Shown here: one piece after another, positions 20,893 to 35,224 of the stretch
How the letters are laid out: every line of letters starts with the position of its first letter
Position numbering within the stretch: the first letter of the stretch is position 1
Origin: Streptacidiphilus melanogenes
Lineage (GTDB): Bacteria; Actinomycetota; Actinomycetes; Streptomycetales; Streptomycetaceae
DNA length: 35,411 bases
Reading direction: 5' to 3'
NCBI RefSeq assembly: GCF_000787835.1
Contig: NZ_BBPP01000004.1
Location: forward strand, 258,377-293,787
The notes under the pieces: generated by a model
Databases searched by the model: none
What the model was told of the DNA's origin: nothing
What the model saw: only the letters and a program-made list of their open reading frames with translations
Program-made: the position numbers and the translations under genes

Positions 20893-20895
20893 GCC

Positions 20896-20933
20896 TTGAC
20901 AATGCCATATCCGCTCCATAAGTTCATTGGCAA
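20896..20933 (+). promoter_or_regulatory. xylA promoter and likely XylR operator
   Basis: TTGACA (20896-20901) and TAAGTT (20919-20924) are spaced by 17 nt, a good consensus promoter for xylA. The inverted repeat TTGACAATG (20896-20904) / CATTGGCAA (20925-20933), 9 bp with one mismatch and a 20-nt centre, brackets the promoter, and its left arm contains the -35. The region is much richer in AT than its surroundings. It is the likely XylR site, controlling both directions. Confidence 0.65.
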
Positions 20934-20971
20934 TACAAATACCTTCGCTCCCTTCGGCTGAGGAGTCCGCC

Positions 20972-22165: not shown

Positions 22166-23667
22166 CCCTGGTCGCCGGCGTCGACTCCTCGACGCAGTCC
22201 TGCAAGGTCGTGATCCGCGACGCGGAGACCGGAGCCCTGGTGCGCCAGGGCTCCGCCCCGCATCCGCCCGGCACCGAGGTGGACCCGGAGGCCTGGTGGA
22301 CGGCCTTGGGCCGCGCCGCCGAGGCGGCGGGCGGCCTCGACGACGTCGCCGCGCTCTCGGTCGCCGGGCAGCAGCACGGCATGGTGTCCCTGGACACCGA
22401 CGGCACAGTGGTGCGGCCCGCGCTGCTGTGGAACGACACCCGCTCCGCCGGGGCGGCGGACGAGCTGGTCCGCGAACTCGGGCCGAAGGTCTGGGCCGAG
22501 GCGGTCGGCAGCGTGCCCGTGGCGTCCTTCACGGTGACCAAGCTGCGCTGGCTCGCCGAGCACGAGCCGGAGCACGCCGCCAGGGTCACGGCGGTCTGCC
22601 TGCCGCACGACTGGCTCACCTGGCGCCTGCGCGGCTTCGGCGGCAGCGGCCCGAGCGGTGGCCCGGCGGCGCGCGCGGCTGCGGGTGCAGGCGCTGGAGC
22701 GACTGTGGCGTCGGGCGCTGGGTCGGGTGCCGGCTTGGACGCCCTCACCACCGACCGCAGCGACGCGTCCGGGACCGGGTACTGGTCGCCGCGCACGGGG
22801 GAGTACCGCCAGGACCTGCTGGCGCTCGCGTTCGGGCGCACGCCTCTCCTGCCGCGCGTCCTGGGGCCCGCGCAGTCGCCGGGACCCGCCGCCGCGCTGC
22901 GCGGCGACGTGCTGCTCGGCCCCGGCGCGGGTGACAACGCCGCGGCCGCCCTCGGTCTGGGCGCCCGCCCCGGGGACGTGGTGGTCTCGATCGGGACCTC
23001 CGGCACCGTCTTCGCGGTCTGCGCCGCGCCGACCGCCGATCCGGACGGTGCGATCGCCGGCTTCGCCGACGCGGCCGGGGCGTTCCTGCCGCTGGTCTGC
23101 ACGTTGAACGCGGCCCGCGTGCTGGACGCGGCCGCGTCGACGCTGGACGTGAACCTGGCGGAGGTGTCCCGACTCGCGCTCTCGGCGCCGCCCGGCGCGG
23201 ACGGGCTGACCCTGATCCCCTACCTGGAGGGCGAGCGCACACCGAACCTCCCCGACGCCGCCGGTTCGCTGCACGGGCTCCGCCTGGCCAATGCGAGCCC
23301 GGCGCACCTGGCGCGGGCGTACGTCGAGGGCATGCTGTGCGGACTGGCCGACGGTCTGGACGCCCTGACGGCGGCGGGAGTCCCGATCGAGCGGGTGCTG
23401 CTGGTGGGCGGTGGCGCGAGGTCCGAGGCCGTGCGCCGGATCGCCCCGGCGATCCTCGGCCGCCCGGTGGCGGTCCCGCCGCCCGGCGAGTACGTCGCCG
23501 ACGGCGCCGCGGTCCAGGCGGCGTGGATGCTCGGCGGGCAGTCCGATCCGCCCCGCTGGGGCGGCGCCGAGGTGGAGGTCCACGAGGCCGCACCTGCGCG
23601 GTGGATCCGCGAGCGGTACCGTGACCACCGCGAGGGCATTAGTTCGGCTATTGTTGGAATGAAATAG
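22162..23667 (+). CDS. xylB: Xylulokinase
   Basis: A 501-residue FGGY-family carbohydrate kinase phosphorylating D-xylulose to xylulose 5-phosphate. Features include the N-terminal [14 protein letters not shown] phosphate loop, AGQQHGMV and [29 protein letters not shown], the catalytic base D258 in [13 protein letters not shown], and [11 protein letters not shown], then [16 protein letters not shown]. Residues 159-194 are a Gly/Ala/Ser-rich low-complexity insertion in the loop before TTDRSDASG, not seen in E. coli XylB. The GTG start overlaps the xylA stop. The last codons (ISSAIVGMK, stop 23665-23667) contain the complete left half and most of an operator for the following regulator gene. 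Confidence 0.93.
23639..23663 (+). promoter_or_regulatory. Shared ROK operator, copy 1 (before ROK regulator 1)
   Basis: TTAGTTC (23639-23645), an 11-nt centre GGCTATTGTTG, then GAATGAA (23657-23663), an imperfect match (2 of 7 differ) to GAACTAA. The centre is identical at 10 of 11 positions to copy 2 at 30701. It ends inside the stop region of xylB, about 74 bp before the regulator start at 23737. A TACTAG hexamer at 23682-23687 may be the -10 of that gene, so the operator would sit over or just above the -35. Confidence 0.65.
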
Positions 23668-23736
23668 CCCCGGGCCGACGCTACTAGAGTCCTCCTGCGG
23701 AGCGGGCAGCCCGTCATCGAAGGGGGAGCAACAGTC

Positions 23737-25020
23737 GTGGCAACCAACCGGACTGAGTCCTACCCGCGCGACCTGGCCATGGCCGGGCCGCCCGGGGCCA
23801 AGGACCGCTCCTCGACGCGCCGCGCGAACCTCAGCCTCATCCTCAACCTCCTGCACGGGGAGGGAGGCCGCTCCCGGGCACGGATCGCCGCCGACACCGG
23901 GCTGCCCAAGGCGACCGTCACCAACCTCATCGCCGAACTCGTCGAGGGCGGCCTGGTCCGCGAGGGCGAGGCCGAGCGCGAGGGCGCGATCGGGCGGCCC
24001 GGCCACGTGGTGGAGCTGGACGGCCGCTCGCTGTGCGGCATCGGCGCCGAGGTCAACGTCGACTACGTGAGCGTGACCGCGCTGAACCTGCCCGGCGACG
24101 TGGTCGCCCAGCGCCGGCTGTCCGTGAACGTCGCCGACACGCCGCCCGAGGAGGTGCTGAGCACCGTCGCGGGCCTCGTCGCGGAGACCGTCGAGGAGCT
24201 GCGCAGGCAAGGGGTCCGCACCATCGGGGTCACCCTCGCCGCGCCCGGGGTCATCGACCCCGAGCCCGGCGTGGTCAGCTACGCCTCCAACATCGGCTGG
24301 CGCGAGGTCTCCGCCGTGGACGGCCTGCGCCGCCGCCTGGGCTCCGCGGCGCCCGAGATCCACCTGGAGAACGACGCCAAGCTCGGCGCCATCGCCGAGT
24401 TCGTCACCGCCACCACCCCCGGCGTGCGCGACCTCGTCTACCTCACCGGCACCACCGGCGTCGGCGCGGGCATCATCGCCAGCGGCAAACTCCTGCGCGG
24501 CAACGCCGGGTTCGCGGGCGAGGTCGGCCATCTGCCGCTCGGGGACCCGGAGCAGCCGTGCCCCTGCGGGCGCCAGGGCTGCTGGGAGACCGCCGTCGGC
24601 CTGGCGGCGCTGCTGCGGCTCGCCGCCGATCCGGACGACGAGGTGCACGACCCCGCCACCGACCTCGACAGCCGCCTGCGCGAGCTGCGGCGGCGCGCCG
24701 ACGACGGCGACCCGCGCACGCTCGCCGCGGTCGAGCGCCTCGGCGAGGCGCTGCGCAGCGGCGTCGCCCTGCTCGTGGACATCCTGAACCCCCGACTGCT
24801 GGTACTGGGCGGCCACTTCGCCGTCTTCGGCGACTACCTGGTGCCCGCGATCCGGGACCACGTCCACGAGACCGTGATCGCTCCCAACGCCGGTGGGTGC
24901 GAACTGGTCCCCTCGCAGCTCGGGTTCACCGCCCCTGCGCGCGGCGGGGCGTACCTCGCGCTGGACGCGATCTACCAGGACCCGATCGCCATCATGCAGG
25001 GGCTCCAAGCGGCGGGTTGA
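23737..25020 (+). CDS. ROK-family transcriptional regulator 1
   Basis: A 427-residue ROK repressor. Residues 40-75 carry the winged HTH: GRSRARIAADTGLPKATVTNLIAELVEGGLV. The kinase-like domain has EVNVDYVSVTALNLPGDV, TLAAPGVIDPEPGVVSYASNIGW, HLENDAKLGAIAEF, LTGTTGVGAGIIASGKLLRG, and the zinc motif CPCGRQGCWE (C275, C277, C282). The sugar-binding E and H residues of the ROK fold (FAGEVGHLPLG) are present. It shares the full layout with ROK regulator 2, and the two recognition helices (GLPKATVTNL against GLPRTTVVHL) are close, so they may bind the same site. The GTG start follows AGGGGGAG; the operator copy 1 lies upstream. The strong hairpin after the stop separates it from the convergent hydrolase. 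Confidence 0.87.
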   Translation: MATNRTESYPRDLAMAGPPGAKDRSSTRRANLSLILNLLHGEGGRSRARIAADTGLPKATVTNLIAELVEGGLVREGEAEREGAIGRPGHVVELDGRSLCGIGAEVNVDYVSVTALNLPGDVVAQRRLSVNVADTPPEEVLSTVAGLVAETVEELRRQGVRTIGVTLAAPGVIDPEPGVVSYASNIGWREVSAVDGLRRRLGSAAPEIHLENDAKLGAIAEFVTATTPGVRDLVYLTGTTGVGAGIIASGKLLRGNAGFAGEVGHLPLGDPEQPCPCGRQGCWETAVGLAALLRLAADPDDEVHDPATDLDSRLRELRRRADDGDPRTLAAVERLGEALRSGVALLVDILNPRLLVLGGHFAVFGDYLVPAIRDHVHETVIAPNAGGCELVPSQLGFTAPARGGAYLALDAIYQDPIAIMQGLQAAG

Positions 25021-25282
25021 CCGCGGGCGCGGCGCGCGGGGGCGGCCGGGCACGTGGGTCGCGCTGCGGCCGTTGCGCATCGCGGGGTGGCCGACTGCTT
25101 CCCGGCGCGTCCGACGTCAGGGTGCCGCGAGTGTCCTCGCGGGGCTCGGGCCGCCGCGGTGACGGTGAGGCCGGGTTGCGGTAGCCGCTGCTTTGCGGCG
25201 GTCCCCGAGGCCCAGCGGGCGGTCCGGTGCTGCGGATCACGGACTGCCTGACGGCCGCGCCGCCACGGCGCACGCCCATGGC

Positions 25283-25322
25283 CGCGCGCCGACCTCGGCC
25301 TGGGAGGCGAGGTCGGCGCGCG
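25283..25322. terminator. 15-bp perfect hairpin between convergent genes
   Basis: CGCGCGCCGACCTCG (25283-25297) and CGAGGTCGGCGCGCG (25308-25322) are exact complements with a 10-nt loop. It is the strongest hairpin seen in the window, placed in the 317-bp gap between the ends of ROK regulator 1 and the reverse hydrolase gene; the rest of the gap holds nothing recognisable. It should stop transcription from both sides. Confidence 0.8.
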
Positions 25323-25337
25323 TCGCTCCGTGCGGCG

Positions 25338-27338
25338 TCAGTGCCAGTCGACGCGCAACCAGCCGCGGTATGGGAGATGTTCGATGGCGCGGAGGTGGCG
25401 GCCGTCCCAGGTGGACGTCGCCGGTTCGGGCTCGGCCAGGGGGGTCAGACGGAAGGACGTGACCCCCTCCGGTGCCCGCGGCAGGTCGACCCGCGGGCGG
25501 GCCGGGTCGGCGCTGCCGTTGGCCACCGTCAGGCTCCAGCCGTCGTCGGTGCGCAGCAGGTGGGGGAGCAGGTGCGGGCCGCCGCTGACGAGCGGGAGCG
25601 TGGGCCGGTCGGCTTCGAGGAACCGGATCGTCGCGTGCAGGAGGCGCTGGCCGTCGTCGTCGAAGGGCAGCAGTTCCGGCGCGGTGGCGGCGAGGACCGC
25701 GACCCGGCCGCCGACAGCGTTGCGAAATACGAAGCGGCCGACACCCCACGGCTCCTGGCGCGGTGTCAGGATCCGCGTCCAGACTTCGGCCTCTGCCACC
25801 GGCGTCAACCGGGCGAGAGCCGGTTGGTTGTTGACGCTGAGGTAGACCTCGGCCGTGTCGCTTCCCGCAGTCGGCGCCACCCGCTCCAGCGCGTACGGAC
25901 CCGGCGCGGCGGCGTGGTCCTCGCGGGTGACGAGCCCGACCGAGGCGAGGCCGATCAGGTCGCCGAAGCCGCGCCGGACGAGGATGTCCGCGGCGACGCC
26001 GTCCAGCAGGGTTCCGCCGCGCAGGAACTCCCGGACCTCGGCGTCGTCGAACGCCCAGGCCAGCTGGCCGAACAGGACCCGTACCGGGGCCGGTCCGGCG
26101 GTGACGGGGACGCCGTAGCGCAGCAGGAGGTCGGCCGCGGGGCCCGCGTCGACGGCCAGCTCGCCGAGGTCGCCGCCGACCCGGGCGCGCACATGCGCGG
26201 CGGCCTCGGGCCGCACCGGCAGGCCGACGCCGAAGGTGTGCAGCTCCCGCGGTTGCCGGTCCGCGATCCAGTCGAGGGCCGGGCGGGAGCGGCGGAGCAT
26301 CTCCGCGATGTCAGGGAAGCGCTGTGCCTGGCCGGACTGCATCGGGTGGACGTTGAGGAACATCGCGTCCGAGCCTGCGAGTTGAGCCGCCACGAGCTCG
26401 GACCAGGTCTGCGTGTCGGACTTGGACCACGCGGTGTGCGGCCAGTTCTCGATCTCCGGTTCGCTGCTGGCCCAGCGCGGACGCAGGGCGCGCTGGACCT
26501 CCAGCGTCCACAAGGAGAAGGACAGTTCGCGGCCGGGCGCGTCGCTGTAGCGGGCGAAGTGCGGACGGTGGGCCGCCTCGCCCTCGATGGCCAGGGCCTG
26601 GAACAGGGCGGGCCAGTCGCGGCCCTCGACGGAGGCGACACCGAGCTCGGAGCTCATCAGACCGAGCCGGGAACGCCCGCCGGAGGATTCGGCCACTGCT
26701 GCGGCGATCTGCGCGGCGACCTCCAACTGGGCCGTGCGCCAGACTTGTTGCAGCAGTGCGCGCCACGGGTGCGGGGTGCCGGGCGCGGTGACGGCCGCGA
26801 CTGCCCGCTCGTGCGTCACCGGTTCGCCGACCAGCGCCGAGAGCCGGTCCAGCATGGGCTGTTCGAAGCCGCCGCCCCAGGTGAGCGGGGCGTGGTTGTG
26901 GTAGCGGAAGTCGTCCTCCAGCCACAGCACCCGGAAGCCGAGGGTCGCGAAGCGCGCGTAGTGCGAGGTGATCCAGGCGCGCCAGCGAGGGCAGGCGAAG
27001 GAGGCCTGCGCGGTGGCGACCACGCCGTCCGGCCCGACCATCGGGGTGAAGCCGAGCCGGTCCGCGCGGCCGCGGTCGGCGTGCCCGGCGGTGACCCACG
27101 GGTTGAGGCTGACCAGCAGCCCGGCCTCGCGCAGCTGCCTGGCCGCGGCGGCCGCCGTCTCGAACCAGAGGTCCTCGTCCGCGCCAGCGGGATGGCCGGC
27201 GTAGAGCTCCTCGGCTCCGAGCAGCAGCACGACCTCGTCCACGCCGGCCTCGCCGCAGAACTTGACCAGTTCCGTGGTGCGGTCGTGCAGGTCCGGGCCG
27301 GGGTGGAGCTGGAACCGCAGGTGGTACCGGGCGGGCAC
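25338..27338 (-). CDS. Putative cytoplasmic glycoside hydrolase, unclassified TIM-barrel type
   Basis: A 666-residue protein without signal peptide. The first 420 residues read like a TIM barrel: RYHLRFQLHPGPDL, GVDEVVLLLGAEELYAGHPAGAD, AGLLVSLNPWVTAG, GFRVLWLEDDFRYHNHAP (acidic triad E141, D142, D143 at a strand end), RLGLMSSELGVASVEG, and SSEPEIENWPHTAW (E293, E295, E297) are the conserved-looking acidic sites. Residues 430-666 form a beta-rich part that may be a galactosidase-type trimerisation plus beta-sandwich region. I cannot place it in a CAZy family. It follows the permease genes 11 bp after the last stop; GTG 27338 has GAGGAG 8 nt upstream. It probably cleaves the imported oligosaccharide (inference); EDD or the SEPEIE acids could be catalytic. 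Confidence 0.65.
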   Translation of the reverse strand: MPARYHLRFQLHPGPDLHDRTTELVKFCGEAGVDEVVLLLGAEELYAGHPAGADEDLWFETAAAAARQLREAGLLVSLNPWVTAGHADRGRADRLGFTPMVGPDGVVATAQASFACPRWRAWITSHYARFATLGFRVLWLEDDFRYHNHAPLTWGGGFEQPMLDRLSALVGEPVTHERAVAAVTAPGTPHPWRALLQQVWRTAQLEVAAQIAAAVAESSGGRSRLGLMSSELGVASVEGRDWPALFQALAIEGEAAHRPHFARYSDAPGRELSFSLWTLEVQRALRPRWASSEPEIENWPHTAWSKSDTQTWSELVAAQLAGSDAMFLNVHPMQSGQAQRFPDIAEMLRRSRPALDWIADRQPRELHTFGVGLPVRPEAAAHVRARVGGDLGELAVDAGPAADLLLRYGVPVTAGPAPVRVLFGQLAWAFDDAEVREFLRGGTLLDGVAADILVRRGFGDLIGLASVGLVTREDHAAAPGPYALERVAPTAGSDTAEVYLSVNNQPALARLTPVAEAEVWTRILTPRQEPWGVGRFVFRNAVGGRVAVLAATAPELLPFDDDGQRLLHATIRFLEADRPTLPLVSGGPHLLPHLLRTDDGWSLTVANGSADPARPRVDLPRAPEGVTSFRLTPLAEPEPATSTWDGRHLRAIEHLPYRGWLRVDWH

Positions 27339-27349
27339 GCGGGGACTCC

Positions 27350-28288
27350 TCACTTGACGCTGCCGGCGGTCAGGCCGGAGCGCCAGTAGCGCTGCAGGGA
27401 AAGGAACAGGACGACCAGCGGGACCGCGGAGATCATGGCCGCGGTGATGACGATGTTGTAGGGCGGCGCGCTCGGGCCGATGGCGCGCTGCGCCTGCCAG
27501 CCGACGATGCCCTCGGTGACCGGCTGCAGCTTGTCGTTGGCGAGCATGAGGACCGGCAGCAGGTAGTTGGTCCAGATCGACACGAACTGGAACAGGAAGA
27601 TGGTGACCAGCGCCGGGGCCATCACCCGCATCGAGATGGTGAAGAAGATCCGCAGCTCTCCCGCCCCGTCGATGCGGCCGGCCTCCAGCAGCTCGTCGGG
27701 CACGGAGGCGCCGGCGTAGATGCGGGCCAGGTAGACGCCGAACGGGCTGACCATGCTGGGCAGCAGGACGGCCCAGTAGGTGTTGACCAGGTGCACCTCG
27801 GAGAACAGCAGGTACAGCGGGACGGCGAGCAGCGGCTGCGGCACCAGGACCGCGGCGAGCACCACGTTGAAGGTGAACTCCCGGCCGCGGAAGGGGTACT
27901 TGGTGAGCGCGTAGCCGGCCATCGCGGAGATCAGGGTGCTGACCGTCGCGCCGCCGACCGCGTACAGGGCGCTGTTGAGCAGCCAGGTCGAGTAGATGCC
28001 GCCCTGTTCGGTGAAGACCGTGCGCACGTTGTCGAAGAAGGCGAAGTGCCCGAACCAGAACGCGTTGCCGCTGAACAGGCCGGAGTCGGTCTTGGTGGAC
28101 GCGACCAGCAGCCACCACACCGGCGCGAGGAAGTAGACCGACGCGATGACCAGCACGCCGAGCACGAGCCAGCGCGAGGCGTCGAACCGGATGGGCGGTC
28201 GGTTGCCGACGGGGGCGCGGCGGGCGGCCGCGGCGGGGACTGTCTGCCGCGTGGGGCGGTCGAGCTGGGGAGCGGGGTTGCGGCTCAC
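27350..28288 (-). CDS. Sugar ABC transporter permease 2 (MalG type)
   Basis: A 312-residue inner-membrane permease with six predicted helices. The EAA-type loop that contacts the ATPase reads EAGRIDGAGELRIFFTISMRVMAP. A first helix LVLGVLVIASVYFLAPVWWLL follows a basic N-terminus, then a periplasmic loop, NSALYAVGGATVSTLISAMAGYALTKY and further helices ending QRYWRSGLTAGSVK, the usual MalG tail. The GTG start overlaps the stop of permease 1 by 4 bp (GTGA). It acts with permease 1 and the lipoprotein; no ATPase gene is in the operon, so a shared MsiK-type ATPase is expected. Confidence 0.9.
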   Translation of the reverse strand: MSRNPAPQLDRPTRQTVPAAAARRAPVGNRPPIRFDASRWLVLGVLVIASVYFLAPVWWLLVASTKTDSGLFSGNAFWFGHFAFFDNVRTVFTEQGGIYSTWLLNSALYAVGGATVSTLISAMAGYALTKYPFRGREFTFNVVLAAVLVPQPLLAVPLYLLFSEVHLVNTYWAVLLPSMVSPFGVYLARIYAGASVPDELLEAGRIDGAGELRIFFTISMRVMAPALVTIFLFQFVSIWTNYLLPVLMLANDKLQPVTEGIVGWQAQRAIGPSAPPYNIVITAAMISAVPLVVLFLSLQRYWRSGLTAGSVK

Positions 28289-29238
28289 AGGGCGGCCCCA
28301 CGGTGCTGGACGAGCCTGAGGAAACCGAAGGAGAGCACGAACGCCAGCAGCGCCAGGATCACGGACTCGGCCGCGGCGGCGTTGAAGTTGTTGGCGTTCA
28401 CCGCGTCGTAGGCGGCGTAGATGGGCGTGTAGGTGCTGCTCAGGTTCGGTGCGACGTTGTGCAGGATGGCGGGCTCGTTGTAGAGCTGGGCGGTGCCGAT
28501 GATGGAGAACACGGTGGTGAGCACGAGCGCGGGACGCACCAGCGGGATCTTGATCCGCCAGGCGACGCCCCAGGCCGAGCAGCCGTCCATGGTGGCGGCC
28601 TCGCTGAGCTCGGCCGGGATCGCCTGCAGGGCGGAGTAGATGATCAGCATGTTGTAGCCGGTCCAGCCCCAGGTCAGCATGTTGCCGATGGTCGGGGCCA
28701 GCATGCCGTTCGAGGTCAGGTCCAGGTGCAGGCCGAGGTGGTGTGCGGCCGCCGTGATCGGGCTGAGCCCGGGCGCGACGAGGTAGGACCACATGATGGC
28801 GCCGACGACGCCGGGCAGCGCGTAGGGCAGGAAGAAGGACAGCCGGAAGAACCGCCTGAACAGCGTCGACCTGGCGTCCAGCAGCAGGGCGAGGCCCAGC
28901 GCGAGCCCGAGCATCACCGGCACCTGCACGACGCCGATCAGCAACACCCGCAGCAGCGAGCCGCGGAAGGCCGGATCGCCCAGCGCGGTGGTGTAGTTGG
29001 CGAGCCCGGCGAACACCTGCGTGGGCGCGCTGAGGCCGAGCCCGTCGCGGTGCATCCGGAAGAGGCTCTGGTAGAGCGTGTACCCGATCGGGGCCAGGTA
29101 CATGGCCGCGAAGAGCATCAGGAACGGCGCGAGGAACAGCGCGGCGGTCCGGGCGCGGCGGCGCACGTGGCGGGGCGGACGATGGGCCGCGACCGGTGGA
29201 GTCGCCGTCGCGGCCCGCCCGAGGGGAGCGGTGGTCAT
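28285..29238 (-). CDS. Sugar ABC transporter permease 1 (MalF type)
   Basis: A 317-residue permease. The EAA loop is ELSEAATMDGCSAWGVAWRIKIPLVRP. Other features are the N-terminal helix TAALFLAPFLMLFAAMYLAPIGYTLYQSLF, the LGLALGLALLLDARSTLFRRFFRLSFFLPYALPGVV helices and LTWGWTGYNMLIIYSALQAIP. The N-terminus is basic and cytoplasmic. It is the first permease gene after the solute-binding protein gene, separated by 96 bp that hold a strong stem-loop, and it overlaps permease 2 at its stop. It completes the membrane pair of a CUT1-type oligosaccharide importer. Confidence 0.9.
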   Translation of the reverse strand: MTTAPLGRAATATPPVAAHRPPRHVRRRARTAALFLAPFLMLFAAMYLAPIGYTLYQSLFRMHRDGLGLSAPTQVFAGLANYTTALGDPAFRGSLLRVLLIGVVQVPVMLGLALGLALLLDARSTLFRRFFRLSFFLPYALPGVVGAIMWSYLVAPGLSPITAAAHHLGLHLDLTSNGMLAPTIGNMLTWGWTGYNMLIIYSALQAIPAELSEAATMDGCSAWGVAWRIKIPLVRPALVLTTVFSIIGTAQLYNEPAILHNVAPNLSSTYTPIYAAYDAVNANNFNAAAAESVILALLAFVLSFGFLRLVQHRGAAL

Positions 29239-29274
29239 GCGGGTCGGTGCCTTTCGGACGGGGCGTCGTCGGGG

Positions 29275-29316
29275 CCCCGCACCGCCGCCGGTCAGGGCCC
29301 GGACGGCGGCGCGGGG
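29275..29316 (-). terminator. Intra-operon stem-loop between binding-protein and permease genes
   Basis: Reading the plus strand, CCCCGC (29275-29280), ACC bulge, GCCGCCG (29284-29290), a 13-nt loop, CGGCGGC (29304-29310) and GCGGGG (29311-29316) pair as a 13-bp stem with a 3-nt bulge. It lies after the binding-protein stop within the same operon. Such structures in ABC operons reduce read-through or protect the upstream mRNA, giving more binding protein than permease. Confidence 0.65.
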
Positions 29317-29334
29317 AGCGGAGGGACGGTCCGG

Positions 29335-30660
29335 TCAGCCGGAGACCGTCAGGCCCTGCTGCTTCATCTCGGCCACGGTCTTGGTCTGCACCGTGCCCAG
29401 CACGCTCGGCAGGGTCGCGCCGCCGGTGCCCGCCTGGCCGAGGCCGTCGCCGAGGTCGGTGGAGGTCTGGGTCATCGTCGGGCCCCACTGCCAGGAGGTG
29501 TTGATGTGCGGGGTCTCGGCGTTGAAGACGTCGTAGATCTTCTGGCCGCCGTAGAAGGCGTCGGGTGCGGACAGGGCCGGGTTGGTGAGCCCGGAGGTGG
29601 CGGCGGGGTAGATGCCGGTGACCTTGATCAGGTTCGAGACGCTGTCGGCGTCCGTGCTCATCCAGACGGCGAACGCGGTGGCCTGCGCGGCGTGCGCGCA
29701 GCCCTTGAGGACGGCGGTGGCCGAACCGCCGTCGTTGCCGTAGACGGGGTTGCCCGCGTCCCAGACCGGCATCGGGGCGACGGCCCACTTGCCGGAGGTG
29801 CTCGCGACGCTGGAGGCGATGATCGGCGCGTCCCAGACGGCGTTGACGTCGGAGAGGATCTTTCCGTTCGCCATGTCCTTGTACAGGGACGGGTCGTAGC
29901 TCGGGTCGGTCTTCAGCAGCTTCTTGTCGAGCAGGCCCTGCCAGTAGGAGGCGACCTTCTGGTTTCCGGCGTTGTCCAGGCTCACCTGCCACTGCTGGTT
30001 CGCGGTGCCGAACCAGGGGGCGCCCGCCTGCCAGGCCAGACCGGCGTAGTTGTAGGCGTCGTTGCCGAAGTCGCCCAGGTAGACGGTGGGATCGGCGGCG
30101 TGCACCTTGGCGGCGTCGGCGGCGTACTGGTCCCAGGTGGCCGGGGGAGTGGTGATGCCGTACTTGGCGAACAGGTCCTTGCGGTACATCAGCGCCATCG
30201 GGGCGGTGTCGACCGGGATGCCGTAGGTGGCGCCGCCGATGCTGACCTGGTTCCAGGTCCAGGTCGCGAACTCGCTCTTGGCGGAGGCGGCGGAGGAGGA
30301 CACGTCCTGCAGGGCGCCGGCGGCGGCGAAGCTCGGCAGCGTCTCGTAGCCGACCTGAGCCAGACACGGGGCGTTCCCGGCCTTCACCGCCGTCAGCATC
30401 TTGGTGTAGCCGCCCTTGGAGCCCGGCGCGGTCGTGTCGAACCTGACCTGGATGTCGGGGTGGGACTTGTTCCACAGTGCGACCGACTGCGCATAGCCGG
30501 GCGCCCAGCCCCAGAAGTCGAGGGTGACCGGCCCGGAGGCGGCGCTGCTGCCACCAGTGGAACCGGAGGCGGTGGAGCCGCTGCTGGAGCAGCCGGTGAG
30601 CGCCGTCGTGGCCGTAAGGGCCACGGCGACGGCCGCGAGAGAGGCGGTTCTGACCTTCAC
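29335..30660 (-). CDS. Extracellular sugar-binding lipoprotein of ABC transporter
   Basis: A 441-residue solute-binding protein of the CUT1 (SBP_bac_1) type. The signal peptide MKVRTASLAAVAVALTATTA is followed by lipobox LTGC, so lipidation is expected on C24, then a Ser/Gly linker. The mature domain opens VTLDFWGWAPGYAQSVALWNKS, with the GAPYDTAPMALMYRKDLFAKYG-like PVDTAPMALMYRKDLFAKYG segment, and W/Y residues for sugar stacking. It is the first gene of a four-gene reverse operon with two permeases and a hydrolase. GAGGAGA lies just upstream of ATG 30660. Its promoter is covered by shared operator copy 2, so it should be repressed until the ligand is present. Confidence 0.92.
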   Translation of the reverse strand: MKVRTASLAAVAVALTATTALTGCSSSGSTASGSTGGSSAASGPVTLDFWGWAPGYAQSVALWNKSHPDIQVRFDTTAPGSKGGYTKMLTAVKAGNAPCLAQVGYETLPSFAAAGALQDVSSSAASAKSEFATWTWNQVSIGGATYGIPVDTAPMALMYRKDLFAKYGITTPPATWDQYAADAAKVHAADPTVYLGDFGNDAYNYAGLAWQAGAPWFGTANQQWQVSLDNAGNQKVASYWQGLLDKKLLKTDPSYDPSLYKDMANGKILSDVNAVWDAPIIASSVASTSGKWAVAPMPVWDAGNPVYGNDGGSATAVLKGCAHAAQATAFAVWMSTDADSVSNLIKVTGIYPAATSGLTNPALSAPDAFYGGQKIYDVFNAETPHINTSWQWGPTMTQTSTDLGDGLGQAGTGGATLPSVLGTVQTKTVAEMKQQGLTVSG

Positions 30661-30700
30661 GTGCGTCTCCTCGGAAAGGGGGTCGGGCGAGGGGCTGTGA

Positions 30701-30725
30701 TTGATTCGGCTATTGTTTGAACTAA
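30701..30725. promoter_or_regulatory. Shared ROK operator, copy 2 (divergent ABC operon / ROK2)
   Basis: TTGATTC (30701-30707), centre GGCTATTGTTT, GAACTAA (30719-30725). On the reverse strand it reads TTAGTTC-11-GAATCAA. For the ABC operon the -35 is TTGACT (30740-30735) and the -10 is AACAAT (30717-30712), spaced by 17 nt, with the -10 inside the operator. For ROK2 the likely -35 is TTGATT (30701-30706) and the -10 is AACTCT (30724-30729), also spaced by 17 nt. One bound dimer could block both. Confidence 0.75.
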
Positions 30726-30779
30726 CTCTGCTGAAGTCAAGGGCGGGCGACGAGGAAAGCCGACGAGGGGAACGGGGGC

Positions 30780-32126
30780 GTGAGGGTGAACCGGTCGGCG
30801 CGGGTGGCGGACGTCCAGGGGCTGGCCATCGCGGGGCCGGTCGTGCGCCGGGACCGCCTGTCGGCCCGGCGGGCCAACCTCGGTGCGGTGCTGCGCCTGC
30901 TGCGCGACGAGGGCCCGCGCGCCCGCACCAGGATCGCCGACGACACCGGACTGCCGAGGACCACGGTCGTGCACCTCGTCGCCGAGCTGCTCGACGGCGG
31001 CCTGGTCGCCGAGGGCGAGCCCGAGCGCGACGGCGCGCTCGGGCGCCCGGCCCTGACGGTCGGGATCGACGGCGCCGACGTCCACGGGATCGGCGTGGAG
31101 GTCAACGTCGACTACCTCGGCCTGCTGGCCCTCAACCTCAGGGGCGAGGTCGCGCTCGAACGTCGCACGCCGTTCGACGTCCCGCGCGCGGACCCGAAGG
31201 CCACGCTCGACGAGACGGCCCGGCTCGTCGCCGCGGCCCTCCGGGCGGTCCGCGCCCGTGGCGGGCGCACGGTCGGGGTCACCCTCGCCACACCCGGTGC
31301 CGTCGACGTCGCCGCCGGGGTGGTCGGCTACGCCGCCAACATCGGCTGGCGCGGCGTGCGGGCGCTCGCCCGGCTGCGCGAGGGGCTCGCGGGCGAGCTC
31401 CCGGAGCTGTTCCTCCAGGACCGGCCTCCGGAGCCGGGTATGTACCCGGAGCTGTACCCGGAGCCGGACCTGTATCTGGAGAACGACGCGAAGCTCGGCG
31501 CGCTGGCCGAGTACGTCCCGGCCTCCGCGCGGGGCGTGCGCGACCTCGTCTACGTCACCGGGCAGACCGGGGTCGGCGTCGGCATCATCGCCGGCGGCCG
31601 GCTCGTGCGCGGCGCGGCCGGTCACGCCGGGGAGATCGGCCACCTGCCGCTCGTCCCCTCCGACCAGCGCTGCTGCTGCGGCCGACGCGACTGCTGGGAG
31701 ACCACGGTCGGCCGCGGCGCGCTGCTGCGCTACGCCGCCGATCCGGCCGACGCGGTCCACGATCCGTCCGTCGACCCGGCGTACCGGCTCGCGGAGCTGC
31801 GCCGCCGCGCCCGGGCCGCCGACGCCCGCACCCTGGACGCGCTGGATCGGATCGCCGCCAATCTTGGGCCCGGCCTCGCCCTGCTCGCGGACGTCCTCAA
31901 CCCGCGCCTGATGGTCCTCGGCGGCCACTTCGCCTACTTCGGCCGCTATCTGACGGACAAGGTCGCTGCGGCGGTGGGCGAGCGGGTCATCGCGCCGCGG
32001 GGCGGCGGCTGCGAGATCGTCCCCTCCGGCCTCGGCTTCGCCGCGGCGGCCCGGGGCGGCGCGCTGCTCGCGCTCGATGCCGTCTACCGGGACCCGATCC
32101 GGGCCATGGCCGGGCGCGGTGTCTGA
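30780..32126 (+). CDS. ROK-family transcriptional regulator 2
   Basis: A 448-residue ROK repressor, paralogue of regulator 1. HTH region: RARTRIADDTGLPRTTVVHLVAELLDGGLV (about 47-76). The ROK domain has EVNVDYLGLLALNL, TLATPGAVDVAAGVVGYAANIGW, LENDAKLGALAEY and VTGQTGVGVGIIAGGRLVRG. The zinc motif is CCCGRRDCWE (C298, C300, C305); the usual Gly before the last Cys is Asp. Residues 208-230 are a Pro-Glu-Tyr-rich insertion absent from regulator 1. GTG 30780 has GAGGGG 9 nt upstream. It is divergent from the ABC operon and followed by the secreted lectin gene, so it is the prime candidate for reading operator copies 2 and 3. Confidence 0.87.
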   Translation: MRVNRSARVADVQGLAIAGPVVRRDRLSARRANLGAVLRLLRDEGPRARTRIADDTGLPRTTVVHLVAELLDGGLVAEGEPERDGALGRPALTVGIDGADVHGIGVEVNVDYLGLLALNLRGEVALERRTPFDVPRADPKATLDETARLVAAALRAVRARGGRTVGVTLATPGAVDVAAGVVGYAANIGWRGVRALARLREGLAGELPELFLQDRPPEPGMYPELYPEPDLYLENDAKLGALAEYVPASARGVRDLVYVTGQTGVGVGIIAGGRLVRGAAGHAGEIGHLPLVPSDQRCCCGRRDCWETTVGRGALLRYAADPADAVHDPSVDPAYRLAELRRRARAADARTLDALDRIAANLGPGLALLADVLNPRLMVLGGHFAYFGRYLTDKVAAAVGERVIAPRGGGCEIVPSGLGFAAAARGGALLALDAVYRDPIRAMAGRGV

Positions 32127-32148
32127 CCAGCGAACCTTGCGCGAAGTC

Positions 32149-32188
32149 TTGACGAGCGCGTTGTTAGTTCGGATTCTAGCGGAACTAT
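32149..32188 (+). promoter_or_regulatory. Promoter and shared ROK operator, copy 3 (secreted lectin gene)
   Basis: TTGACG (32149-32154) and GATTCT (32172-32177) are spaced by 17 nt. The operator is TTAGTTC (32164-32170), centre GGATTCTAGCG, GAACTAT (32182-32188), with the -10 beginning at the second base of the centre. The spacing from -35 to left arm (9 nt) and from left arm to -10 (1 nt) is identical to the reverse-strand promoter of the ABC operon. The leader to ATG 32237 would be about 50 nt. Confidence 0.75.
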
Positions 32189-32236: not shown

Positions 32237-35224
32237 ATGACAGCCAGACTGACAGGGCGGTCGCGCAGAGCGATCGCGGCCGCCCTCGCCGGGTTCACTG
32301 CGCTCTGTGTGCCGCTGCTCGGCGGCGTCCCGACGGCGAGCGCCGCCGCCTCCGCCGGCCCGATCACCATCGGCGGTGCGTGTCTGGACGACGCCAACTC
32401 CGGTACCGCCAACGGCAACACCATCGACGTCCGGAGCTGCGACTCGGGCACGAACCAGAGCTTCACCTGGAACTCCGACGGCAGCGTCACCGTCCTGGGC
32501 AAGTGCCTCGACGTCACTGGCGGCTCCAATGCCAGCGGCGCGGCGATCGAGCTGTACGACTGCACCTCCGGCTCGGCCGGGCAGAAGTTCGCCGCCCTGC
32601 CCGACGGCACCGTCTACGCGCCCAAGTCCGGCAAGTGTCTGGAGGTCCAGGGCGGATCCGTGAGCAACGGCGCGACGATCGGCCTGGAACCCTGCGACCC
32701 CGCCCAGGCTCTGCAGCAGTTCTCTGCCTCCACGGCTCCCGCCGCGCCGTACACGATGGACGCGACCGCGATCACCAACGGCGGCTTCCACGGCAGCGAC
32801 AGCCCCTCGCTCCCCTTCACCGACGCGGGCGGCCAGTTCTACTACCAGAACTCCTACTCCGGGTACGGCGCCACCGACGGCCACGTCTGGAGCTTCTACA
32901 CCGGCGCGAACATGTCCGACGCCGCCGCCGCGTCGATCAACACCTCCGTGAACCCGGCCAACCCCGCCGACGCCAACAACAACACGGTGTGGCGCTGCAA
33001 CAACGGCCCGACCGGCAAGAACGCCACCGCGGGCGGCTACGCCTACGGGGACTACTGCGACCTGGTCGGGGTGTGGGTCGACCCGGACACCGGCTGGTGG
33101 TACGGGCTGGTCCACAACGAGTTCTCGATGAGCCCCTTCGGCGACTCCGCGCACTTCGACGCCATCGACTACGCCGTCTCCAAGGACCACGGCGCCACCT
33201 GGGCCATCACCGACCACGCGATCACCTCCCCGTACTCGACCTCGCGGCCCAATAGCCAGCTGTGGACCATGGCGTCGAACGGGCAGGTGCAGACCGGCAC
33301 CAGCTGTCTGGACATCAACGGGGGCGGCACCGCCGCCGGCACCGCGGTCGACACCTATGGCTGCGGCACGAACCAGTCCAACCAGAAGTGGACCGCGAGC
33401 AACGGCGAGCTGGTCAACCCCGCCTCCAACCTCTGCCTGACCGCTTCGGGCACCACCACGGGCAGCACCTTCACCATCCAGAACTGCACCGGCGCGGCCG
33501 CCCAGCAGTTCACGGCTCCCGCCTCCGGCGCCAAGGGCCAGATCAAGGTCACCGGCTCCACGTCCGAGTGCATCGACGGGACCGGCACGCTGCGGCTCAA
33601 CTCCTGCGACGACCCGACCGTGGACGGGCGCACCGCGTTCCCCCACCAGACCTACTACTGGGGTGACGGCGACCCCCGCCTGTTCACCGACTACCGCTCC
33701 GGCTACTTCTACGTCTTCTACACCTCCCGCCTGGTCGACCAGGGAGGCGGCTGGGGCGCGTTCGAGGAGCACGTCGCCCGCGCGCCGATCTCCCAGAAGA
33801 TGGCGCCTTCCTCCTGGCAGAAGTGGTACGACGGCTCCTGGTCCACTGCGGGTGTCGGCGGCGCCGAGTCCGACGTCATCCCGGCCGACGGCGGCGGCCT
33901 CGGTTACGTTCCCCCCGCCGACGGCTACTCGCCGAGCAGCACCGGCACGATCAGCGCCCAGGTGGCCGCGGGCACCGCGCCGGCCACGTCGCAGCTGTCG
34001 TTCATGAACGTCTCCTACGACACCTACCTCGGCCTGTACATCGCCACCCCCGAGAGCGACTACCCCTCCGGCGGCGCCCCGCAGCACATCTACGCCACCG
34101 GCGACCTGGCCACCCAGCGGTGGACCGACCTCGGTCCGATCGGCGACGCCCAGACCTCCTGGTACCGGTGGCTGATGGACCCGCAGAACCTCACCAGCGA
34201 CACCACCGTGGGCAAGACCGTGCGCATGTACTGCAACATCTCGTGCGAGGACGGCTCCGGCGGCGGCTACACCGACATCACCATCGCACCGAGCGCGGCC
34301 GGCTCCCTGCCCGCCGCCCCGGTCACGGCCGGGTCCGCCTACCAGATCGCGGCCGGAAACGGCCAGTACCTGGCCCAGAGCGGCGCAGGCCTGACCACCG
34401 CCGCCGGGAGCGGCACCAGCGGGCAGTGGACCTTCACCCCCACCGGTGACGGCTTCTACACCGTCACCAACGTCGGCTCCGGCCAGCTGCTCGGTGTGGA
34501 CTCCACCGGCAACGCCGGCCGCGCCTGGGGCGCCGCCGTCACCCCCGCCACCCGCGGCGCCAGCCCCACCGTCGGCCAGCAGTGGTCCGTCCAGAGCATC
34601 CTCAGCACGCCCGCCACCAGCGGCTCCTCCACCCCCACCGGCAACTACCGCCTCGTCAACCGCTACAGCGAGCTGGCCCTGAGCCTCACCAGCGGCACCA
34701 CCCAGCCCGTCGCCACCTCCCCGCAGCGCACCTGGGACAACACCGGCACCAGCGGCGACACCCGCGCCGCCGCCGCGCAGACGCTCACCTTCACGGCGGC
34801 GGCCACGACCACCGACCTCAGCGGCACGCACACGCTGACCCTCGGCGGCCAGGCCCTGGACGACCCCAACTGGTCGACCACGCAGGGCACCCAGCTCGAC
34901 ACCTGGTCCACCAACGGCGGGAAGAACCAGAGCTGGACCTTCACCCGGCAGCCTGACGGCGACTACACCGTCGTGAACGGCAACTCCGGCCAGTGCATGG
35001 ACGACGACGGCGGCGCCACCGCCGCCGGAACCCCGGTGATCCAGTGGAACTGCACCGGCGGCAGCAACCAGGAGTGGACGGTGACCCGGCTGCCCTCGGG
35101 CGCTTACACGCTCACCAACGCGCACTCCGGCCTGCTGCTCACCACCGCCTCCACCGCGAACGGCGCGCTGGTCACCCAGCAGCCGAACACCGGCTCGTCC
35201 CTCCAGCAGTGGACGCTCGGCTGA
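32237..35224 (+). CDS. Secreted multi-lectin protein with Asp-box propeller-like region
   Basis: A 995-residue secreted protein. Signal peptide with twin-arginine-like RSRR start, hydrophobic AAALAGFTALCVPLLGGV, and TASA-A cleavage near 36. Residues 41-162 form a ricin-B beta-trefoil (QSFTW, CLDVTG, QKFAAL). Residues 170-340 and 460-685 are propeller-like; an Asp-box, SKDHGATW (315-322), and strands VWVDPDTGWWYGLVHNEF and YWGDGDPRLFTDYRSGYFYVFY are visible. A second lectin module (341-458) sits between them. Two more lectin modules follow (700-855 and 860-995). Such a fold points to a sialidase- or GH43-like hydrolase, but I cannot assign a family. GGAGG precedes ATG 32237 by 6 nt. Operator copy 3 controls it. 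Confidence 0.7.
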   Translation: MTARLTGRSRRAIAAALAGFTALCVPLLGGVPTASAAASAGPITIGGACLDDANSGTANGNTIDVRSCDSGTNQSFTWNSDGSVTVLGKCLDVTGGSNASGAAIELYDCTSGSAGQKFAALPDGTVYAPKSGKCLEVQGGSVSNGATIGLEPCDPAQALQQFSASTAPAAPYTMDATAITNGGFHGSDSPSLPFTDAGGQFYYQNSYSGYGATDGHVWSFYTGANMSDAAAASINTSVNPANPADANNNTVWRCNNGPTGKNATAGGYAYGDYCDLVGVWVDPDTGWWYGLVHNEFSMSPFGDSAHFDAIDYAVSKDHGATWAITDHAITSPYSTSRPNSQLWTMASNGQVQTGTSCLDINGGGTAAGTAVDTYGCGTNQSNQKWTASNGELVNPASNLCLTASGTTTGSTFTIQNCTGAAAQQFTAPASGAKGQIKVTGSTSECIDGTGTLRLNSCDDPTVDGRTAFPHQTYYWGDGDPRLFTDYRSGYFYVFYTSRLVDQGGGWGAFEEHVARAPISQKMAPSSWQKWYDGSWSTAGVGGAESDVIPADGGGLGYVPPADGYSPSSTGTISAQVAAGTAPATSQLSFMNVSYDTYLGLYIATPESDYPSGGAPQHIYATGDLATQRWTDLGPIGDAQTSWYRWLMDPQNLTSDTTVGKTVRMYCNISCEDGSGGGYTDITIAPSAAGSLPAAPVTAGSAYQIAAGNGQYLAQSGAGLTTAAGSGTSGQWTFTPTGDGFYTVTNVGSGQLLGVDSTGNAGRAWGAAVTPATRGASPTVGQQWSVQSILSTPATSGSSTPTGNYRLVNRYSELALSLTSGTTQPVATSPQRTWDNTGTSGDTRAAAAQTLTFTAAATTTDLSGTHTLTLGGQALDDPNWSTTQGTQLDTWSTNGGKNQSWTFTRQPDGDYTVVNGNSGQCMDDDGGATAAGTPVIQWNCTGGSNQEWTVTRLPSGAYTLTNAHSGLLLTTASTANGALVTQQPNTGSSLQQWTLG

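What the first reader, a model, noticed from the sequence alone, without database searches (positions are those of the whole stretch)
23639..32188. Three copies of one 25-bp operator tie two ROK repressors, a sugar importer and a secreted lectin enzyme into one regulon
Copies at 23639-23663, 30701-30725 and 32164-32188 share arms TTAGTTC/GAACTAA (2, 2 and 1 mismatches) with an exactly 11-nt centre. The first two centres are identical at 10 of 11 positions, which symmetry alone does not require, so the centre seems to be read too. No other good copy was seen in the window. The genes behind the copies form a complete uptake-and-hydrolysis system. Sequence repeats are seen directly; the regulatory meaning is inferred from family knowledge of ROK repressors.
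Basis: partly seen in the sequence, partly recalled or inferred. Interest (0 to 1): 0.78.

Follow-up and report, generated by a model that had tools for sequence, protein, structure and literature searches.

The report
Operator-promoter set of a ROK regulon
Three near-identical DNA boxes in a Streptacidiphilus-type soil bacterium are very probably the docking sites of one sugar-sensing repressor that shuts off a sugar importer and secreted enzymes by sitting on their promoters; the arrangement is real and conserved in relatives, but of a known general kind.

Summary
In detail: three 25-bp sites, beyond chance. The genome holds a fourth copy, before a second lectin enzyme. The sites track one ROK clade: in 297 sampled family genomes a promoter-plus-operator pattern occurs in 41, the regulator in 50, both in 39. 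In 37 of 40 target promoters TTGAC lies 9 or 10 nt before the operator, whose centre holds the -10 hexamer; where ROK diverges from its target, the centre also fits a -10 on the other strand. So the conserved centre need not be read by the repressor, though that is not excluded. The two-repressor claim is weaker: the two nearest relatives lack ROK2, one keeping a gene remnant, yet their remaining operators are unchanged. XylR seems separate. Likely mechanism: ROK1 without sugar covers the -10 and blocks transcription. Binding, repression and ligand are inferred. The 7-11-7 layout is known from RokB, the ends from the Bacillus xyl operator: a new member of a known kind. Open are the ligand and two enzymes whose catalytic parts match no Pfam family.

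The parts
23639..23663 (.). Operator copy S1, upstream of ROK1, overlapping the 3' end of xylB
   Evidence: unchanged 25 of 25 in G007 and G010 while flanks changed
23649..23654 (+). Candidate -10 (TATTGT) for ROK1 inside S1
   Evidence: operator positions 11-16 on the ROK strand; inference
30701..30725 (.). Operator copy S2 between divergent SBP and ROK2 genes
   Evidence: unchanged 25 of 25 in G007 and G010
30735..30740 (-). -35 box TTGACT of the SBP operon, 9 nt from S2
   Evidence: function inferred
30712..30717 (-). Candidate -10 (AACAAT) of the SBP operon inside S2, 17-bp spacer
   Evidence: inference
30711..30716 (+). Candidate -10 (TATTGT) for ROK2 inside S2
   Evidence: inference
32149..32154 (+). 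-35 box TTGACG of the lectin-enzyme gene, 9 nt from S3
   Evidence: function inferred
32164..32188 (.). Operator copy S3 upstream of the lectin enzyme
   Evidence: unchanged 25 of 25 in G007
32172..32177 (+). Candidate -10 (GATTCT) of the lectin-enzyme gene inside S3, 17-bp spacer
   Evidence: inference
23737..25020 (+). ROK1, ROK-family regulator, likely main repressor
   Evidence: Pfam ROK 8.8e-49; orthologues beside the operator in relatives
25338..27347 (-). GHx, putative intracellular glycosidase of GH42-like predicted fold, no Pfam match
27350..28291 (-). ABC sugar permease 2
   Evidence: BPD_transp_1 5.2e-12
28285..29238 (-). ABC sugar permease 1
   Evidence: BPD_transp_1 4.9e-14
29335..30660 (-). 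Extracellular solute (sugar) binding protein, SBP
   Evidence: SBP_bac_1 2.5e-36
30780..32126 (+). ROK2, diverged ROK regulator, 56% identical to ROK1
   Evidence: Pfam ROK 1.9e-42
32237..35224 (+). Ricin-lectin protein, probably secreted (signal-like N terminus by eye), with a beta-propeller core
   Evidence: Ricin domains; propeller fold by Foldseek on a homologue's core

Best explanation
The 25-bp palindromes are operators of one ROK clade (ROK1; ROK2 is a second member of it). Each operator is wrapped round the -10 region of the promoter it controls: TTGACN, 9 nt, then the operator, whose positions 9-14 hold the -10 hexamer (NANNNT) 17 bp from the -35. Where a ROK gene diverges from the target operon, the same centre also gives a -10 (TANNNT, positions 11-16) in the ROK direction, so one bound dimer would block both directions and close an autoregulatory loop; release by a sugar would open importer, intracellular enzyme and lectin enzymes together. 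S1 with ROK1 looks like a relocated copy of the ancestral divergent promoter-ROK block whose SBP-direction -35 is decaying. Shown: sites, their conservation, promoter-like geometry, co-occurrence with the ROK clade. Inferred: promoter activity, binding, repression, sugar release, ligand.
For: (three sites, shuffle mean 0.05); fourth copy before a paralogous lectin enzyme (54-64% identical over the two long segments), flanks diverged; in 14 genomes of the genus TTAGTT-N13-AACTAA with up to 1 mismatch has 24 places: 15 at SBP, ROK or lectin genes, 6 of the MarR-box type, 3 other; backward control 6; of 40 target-gene promoters (operator with up to 2 mismatches, gene match within 450 nt; 34 clusters at 80% identity) 32 have TTGAC at 9 nt, 5 at 10 nt, 3 neither; of those 37, 32 have NANNNT at a 17-bp spacer and the 5 with the longer gap have it at 18, at the same operator positions. 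A10 and T14 in 37 of 37; 15 of 19 genomes with the ROK clade and 0 of 42 without it have the composite pattern (25 matches; control 2); 39 of 50 genomes with ROK, 2 of 247 without (55 matches; control 9). S1, S2 and S3 have 0 of 25 changes between sister species, their 40-nt flanks 4 to 27; operators kept where ROK2 is missing; the box behind S1 reads TTGAC, TTGGC, TCGGC in G007, G010 and the window. Precedent: NagR operators overlap -10 or -35 in 10 of 11 cases (PMC9599254, passages seen); AcrR represses both directions of a bidirectional promoter (PMC12825309, passages).
Against: No binding or expression data. 11 of 50 sampled family genomes with the regulator lack the composite pattern, and 6 of 23 named loci at 50% identity or more have no site with up to 2 mismatches in -450..+60 (one of the six, L077, is a partial gene). 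The TTGAC spacing is absent from 3 of 3 sites before lectin genes in Kutzneria and Actinocrispum. ROK proteins may also activate (recalled). The test meant to separate a ROK-direction -10 from protein reading did not: A15 is 20 of 21 at divergent sites and 13 of 16 elsewhere, p = 0.30. Genomes are related, so counts are not independent.
Confidence: 0.8

Rival explanations
1. The ROK protein reads the 11-bp centre directly, besides the arms.
For: Centres of S1 and S2 agree at 10 of 11. In Paenibacillus XylR an asymmetric inner base matters: repairing the palindrome left a binding ratio of 1.9% (PMC9104551, passages seen). A15 is mostly kept also where no ROK gene diverges (13 of 16).
Against: The invariant centre positions 10 and 14 coincide with a -10 hexamer at a 17-bp spacer; centre positions other than 10, 14 and 15 hold only 0.23 to 0.96 bit. 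S1 and S2 are probably copies of one promoter.
Confidence: 0.25
2. Two repressors share the regulon with different ligands, ROK2 adding a second input.
For: ROK2 is an intact frame, and its four orthologues found in Kitasatospora and Streptomyces sit beside the same operator; its recognition-helix region and a 21-residue insert beside the ENDAK motif differ from ROK1.
Against: ROK2 is missing in two sister species with the remaining operators unchanged; 43 of 50 sampled genomes with such a ROK have one match only.
Confidence: 0.3
3. The sites belong to XylR, the third ROK protein of the window, and the regulon is xylose catabolism.
For: XylR and xylAB adjoin S1; the Bacillus xyl operator has the same outer bases.
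Against: The xylR-xylA intergenic region has no copy (best 5 of 12 arm mismatches) but an element of its own, the same in three species; operators follow the ROK1 clade also in fetched loci without xyl genes.
Confidence: 0.04
4. The repeats are chance or mere remnants of recent duplication without function.
For: S1 and S2 probably share origin; at 3 mismatches the control is as frequent as the pattern or more.
Confidence: 0.01

Closest known systems
B. subtilis XylR / xyl operator (PMC12034463, passage seen)
   Same: Repressor operator of 25 bp, TTAGTTTGTTTGGGCAACAAACTAA, with the same TTAGTT/AACTAA ends; XylR is of the ROK family
   Different: There ten palindromic bases flank five central ones; here mainly the outer six or seven are palindromic and the centre fits a -10. 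The window's own XylR is outside the ROK1/ROK2 clade.
RokB of Streptomyces coelicolor (PMC4856308, passages seen)
   Same: Novobiocin-cluster site TTTGTTC-11X-GAACAAA: same 7-11-7 layout, arm differs at one base
   Different: RokB's genomic sites have no perfect inverted repeat, and its proposed role is amino-acid metabolism and transport
NagR of Bifidobacterium (PMC9599254, passages seen)
   Same: ROK repressor of ABC importers and glycosidases; operators overlap -10 or -35 in 10 of 11
   Different: Effectors GlcNAc and its phosphates; motif letters not compared; no fixed promoter-operator unit in the passages read
CsnR of Streptomyces lividans (PMC3048496, passages seen)
   Same: ROK repressor of a secreted glycanase through a palindromic operator
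   Different: Chitosanase target; operator letters not compared here
Bidirectional promoters, e.g. acrA/acrR (PMC12825309, passages seen)
   Same: One shared -10 drives both directions; the autorepressor blocks both
   Different: TetR-family repressor, E. coli

Membership tests
ROK-family transcriptional regulators | ROK domain | tested here: met
   ROK1 8.8e-49, ROK2 1.9e-42
ROK-family transcriptional regulators | N-terminal winged helix (absent in ROK kinases) | tested here: met
   HTH_IclR above its cut-off in both
ROK-family transcriptional regulators | CxCGxxGCxE zinc motif (recalled) | tested here: inconclusive
   Met in ROK1; in ROK2 the glycine before the third cysteine is D, cysteines kept (by eye)
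ROK-family transcriptional regulators | Binds the palindromic operator, released by a sugar | not testable with these tools
   Needs protein
ROK operator of 7-11-7 layout | Two 7-bp arms 11 bp apart | tested here: met
   spacing scan in 45 loci: N13 between 6-mers in 25, the 16 other spacings tried 0 to 9
Autoregulated ROK sugar regulon | Site before the regulator and before importer genes | tested here: met
   Position only; regulation itself not tested
XylR (xylose) regulators | Controls xylAB through the same site | tested here: not met
   No copy between xylR and xylA; ROK1/2 clade leaves out the window's XylR
GH42 / clan GH-A (GHx) | Fold similarity | tested here: inconclusive
   Foldseek E 2.2e-16 to GH42, but model pLDDT 66.5 and TM about 0.55
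GH42 / clan GH-A (GHx) | Sequence family match | tested here: not met
   No Pfam match up to E 10, none in NCBIfam up to 0.001

The most novel reading that the evidence does not exclude
A conserved promoter-operator unit (TTGACN-9-operator with a bidirectional -10 in its centre) is the cis-signature of an undescribed actinobacterial ROK regulon that pairs two glycosidase-like protein families without a Pfam model (a GH42-like intracellular protein and a secreted lectin-propeller) for a glycan not yet known.
Probability: 0.55. Interest if true: 0.55.

Novelty: new member of a known kind. Interest (0 to 1): 0.42.

Why it matters
It gives a testable cis-code by which the regulon can be sought in actinobacterial genomes, offers a way to separate promoter from repressor constraint inside one operator, and supplies two natural losses of one regulator. 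It also points to two enzyme families to assay together; their shared control suggests one substrate.

Tried and rejected
Rejected: XylR as reader of the sites. The C92 palindrome as a fifth copy: it lies before a MarR-family gene. Chance.

Led nowhere: the A15 comparison between divergent and one-way promoters. Sequence searches of solved structures with both enzyme alignments: 0 matches for the propeller core, two weak unrelated ones (E 0.27) for GHx. Literature: the listings showed no title on this regulon, but they list only part of the papers that matched (for example 20 of 221, 10 of 82,732, 8 of 631, 12 of 91), the library lacks most subscription journals, and databases such as RegPrecise could not be searched; 'undescribed' is limited to that.

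Dropped before counts: L091 (match begins at base 8), so 79 of 80 loci, seven loci judged to be the same genomes as others (L056, L057, L060, L062, L075, L077, L118; from equal contig lengths or sequence), two wrong-strand gene assignments in L043 (42 to 40 strands); also the three promoters without TTGAC (37 left). In one search spacing 17 gave 9 and spacing 9 gave 5 of 45, against 25 for spacing 13. Upstream sites (7-nt arms, up to 3 mismatches, by my reading): 18 of 20 genes of the clade (not L011, L017); 1 of 8 ROK genes outside it (L021, 3 mismatches). The printed output was cut; its promoters were recomputed.

Full report
Observation. The genome (8.77 Mb, 107 contigs) has one further true copy, at C90:65308. 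It ends 38 nt before a second lectin-enzyme gene whose protein is 54-64% identical to that of the window over the two long segments; its operator differs from S3 at one base of 25 while the rest of the promoter has diverged. Another place with 2 mismatches, at C92, is a TTAGTTGC..GCAACTAA box in front of a MarR-family gene and is of another kind.

Which regulator. ROK1 and ROK2 are 56% identical to each other and 31-35% to the window's XylR. In a tree of 29 ROK proteins they fall in a 20-member clade with 100/100 support that leaves out XylR. In a tree of 38 with named genomes added, ROK1 groups with four proteins of the same genus (100/100) and ROK2 with Streptomyces rubellomurinus, S. tateyamensis and two Kitasatospora (100/100). 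Members of the clade lie beside SBP, permease, GHx and/or lectin genes in many of the 18 twenty-kb loci fetched.

Footprint. Within 14 genomes of the genus, TTAGTT-N13-AACTAA with up to one mismatch occurs at 24 places: 15 at SBP, ROK or lectin genes, 6 of the MarR-box type, 3 elsewhere; the backward control has 6 (of the six MarR-type boxes only that of the window's genome was checked for its gene). In named genomes, 17 of 23 loci with at least 50% identity have a site with up to 2 mismatches within -450..+60 of the match, and 12 of 56 below that; 79 of 80 loci were examined.

Promoter inside the operator. On the strand of the target gene (SBP or lectin) a TTGAC box lies 9 nt (32) or 10 nt (5) before the operator in 37 of 40 promoters; the other three are lectin genes of Kutzneria and Actinocrispum. 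With TTGACN as -35, the hexamer 17 bp on is NANNNT in 32 of 37; in the five with a 10-nt gap it sits at the same operator position, so it is tied to the operator. A10 and T14 are invariant in 37 of 37 and A15 is present in 33. Adenine at -11 and thymine at -7 are the conserved positions of HrdB promoters in S. coelicolor (PMC6344877, passages seen; the same passage says most of those promoters lack a -35 element or have a poorly conserved one). On the ROK strand of divergent sites the same bases give TANNNT at positions 11-16 in 20 of 21 (from the columns); over all 38 ROK strands, which include ROK genes outside the clade, it is 23. So operator and promoter look like one unit, bidirectional where ROK diverges from its target. 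Similar logic is published for AcrR (PMC12825309, passages) and, for overlap with -10 or -35, for NagR (PMC9599254, passages).

Co-occurrence. The composite pattern TTGAC-N10-TTAGTT-N13-AACTAA with up to 2 mismatches was found in 15 of 61 relatives, all 15 among the 19 with a ROK match of at least 45% identity, none among the other 42; 25 matches, control 2. In a sample of 297 family genomes the pattern is in 41 and a ROK1 match (E up to 1e-80) in 50; 39 have both, 2 the pattern only, 11 the regulator only (Fisher test, with the reserve that genomes are related). There were 55 pattern matches and 9 control matches. Of the 34 matches outside the genus, 30 lie within about 400 bp of the ROK match on the same contig, by my reading of the tables (one place in G198 counts on both strands); the four others are in G131, G144, G152 and G220:C6.

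History and the role of ROK2. In G007 the SBP and lectin genes are kept with S2 and S3, but ROK2 is gone; about 27 nt of its 3' end remain between the two operators. In G010 the 413 bp that the contig holds beyond S2 are another sequence, and only one ROK of the clade was found; both are drafts. S1 and S2 are unchanged in 25 of 25 in both and S3 in G007, while the 40-nt flanks differ at 4 to 27 positions (ungapped, so small indels inflate the S2 flanks, and the S1 upstream flank of G010 hardly aligns). So ROK1 suffices to keep the sites under selection, or the losses are very recent. Behind S1, on the strand away from ROK1, the box that is the -35 of SBP elsewhere reads TTGAC in G007, TTGGC in G010 and TCGGC in the window: S1 looks like a relocated copy of the divergent promoter whose unused half decays. 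This also explains the 10 of 11 identical centre bases of S1 and S2 by descent. The inference rests on three species.

What is controlled. The operon is SBP, two permeases and GHx; a motif search found no ABC signature or Walker A motif in the window, so an unlinked ATPase (MsiK-type, recalled) would have to serve it. GHx matches no Pfam model up to E 10 and no NCBIfam model; its predicted fold (pLDDT 66.5) resembles GH42 beta-galactosidases and GH164 (best E 2.2e-16, TM about 0.55). The core of the lectin protein has no Pfam match apart from ricin-type domains; the model of the S. pinicola homologue's core (pLDDT 63.7) resembles propellers of GH117, sialidase, GH43 and GH93 type (best E 8.4e-08; TM 0.26-0.45 in the 50 listed, so the family is open). 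Beside the fourth operator are a ROK-domain protein without a winged-helix match, probably a kinase, and a melibiase-type lectin protein. A galactose- or arabinose-containing glycan is a fair guess, no more.

Mechanism and verdict. Most likely ROK1 without sugar binds the operator as a dimer, covers -10 in one or both directions, and leaves when an uptake product binds. Binding, direction of control and ligand are inferred. The 7-11-7 layout is known from RokB's novobiocin-cluster site (PMC4856308, passages) and the outer bases from the B. subtilis xyl operator (PMC12034463, passage). I therefore call it a new member of a known kind; the tight promoter-operator unit and the two enzyme families without models are the parts worth pursuing.

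Noticed in passing
window 33248-33634 (lectin protein, about residues 338-466): A stretch of about 129 residues, ricin-like by eye, interrupts the propeller core of the window's lectin enzyme; the paralogue in L001 lacks it.
   Followed up: partly
window 31441-31464: ROK2 has about 21 extra residues next to its ENDAK motif, containing a perfect 12-bp tandem repeat, absent from the other 20 aligned ROK proteins.
   Followed up: partly
window 20893-20971: The xylR-xylA intergenic region keeps ATAAGTTCATTGGCAATACAAATAC in three species, with TTGACA 17 bp before TAAGTT: probably XylR's own operator over the xylA -10.
   Followed up: partly
   Followed up: partly
L002:4903-4927: Palindrome TTAGTTGCTTGCTCCCAGCAACTAA before a MarR-family gene and an MFS-type transporter (by eye), with similar boxes in five other genomes of the genus.
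   Followed up: partly
L097, L098, L099, L100, L101, L109: Nocardiopsis, Glycomyces and Streptomonospora loci share TTTGTTTGTCTAAACGGCCAACTAA (0 to 1 letter changed) with conserved flanks some 3-5 kb from a ROK gene; the gene behind it was not examined.
   Followed up: no
L114:4883-4907: A Chloroflexi MAG has TTAGTTCGTTGAACCAACAAACTAA before a ROK gene, close to the Bacillus xyl operator.
   Followed up: no
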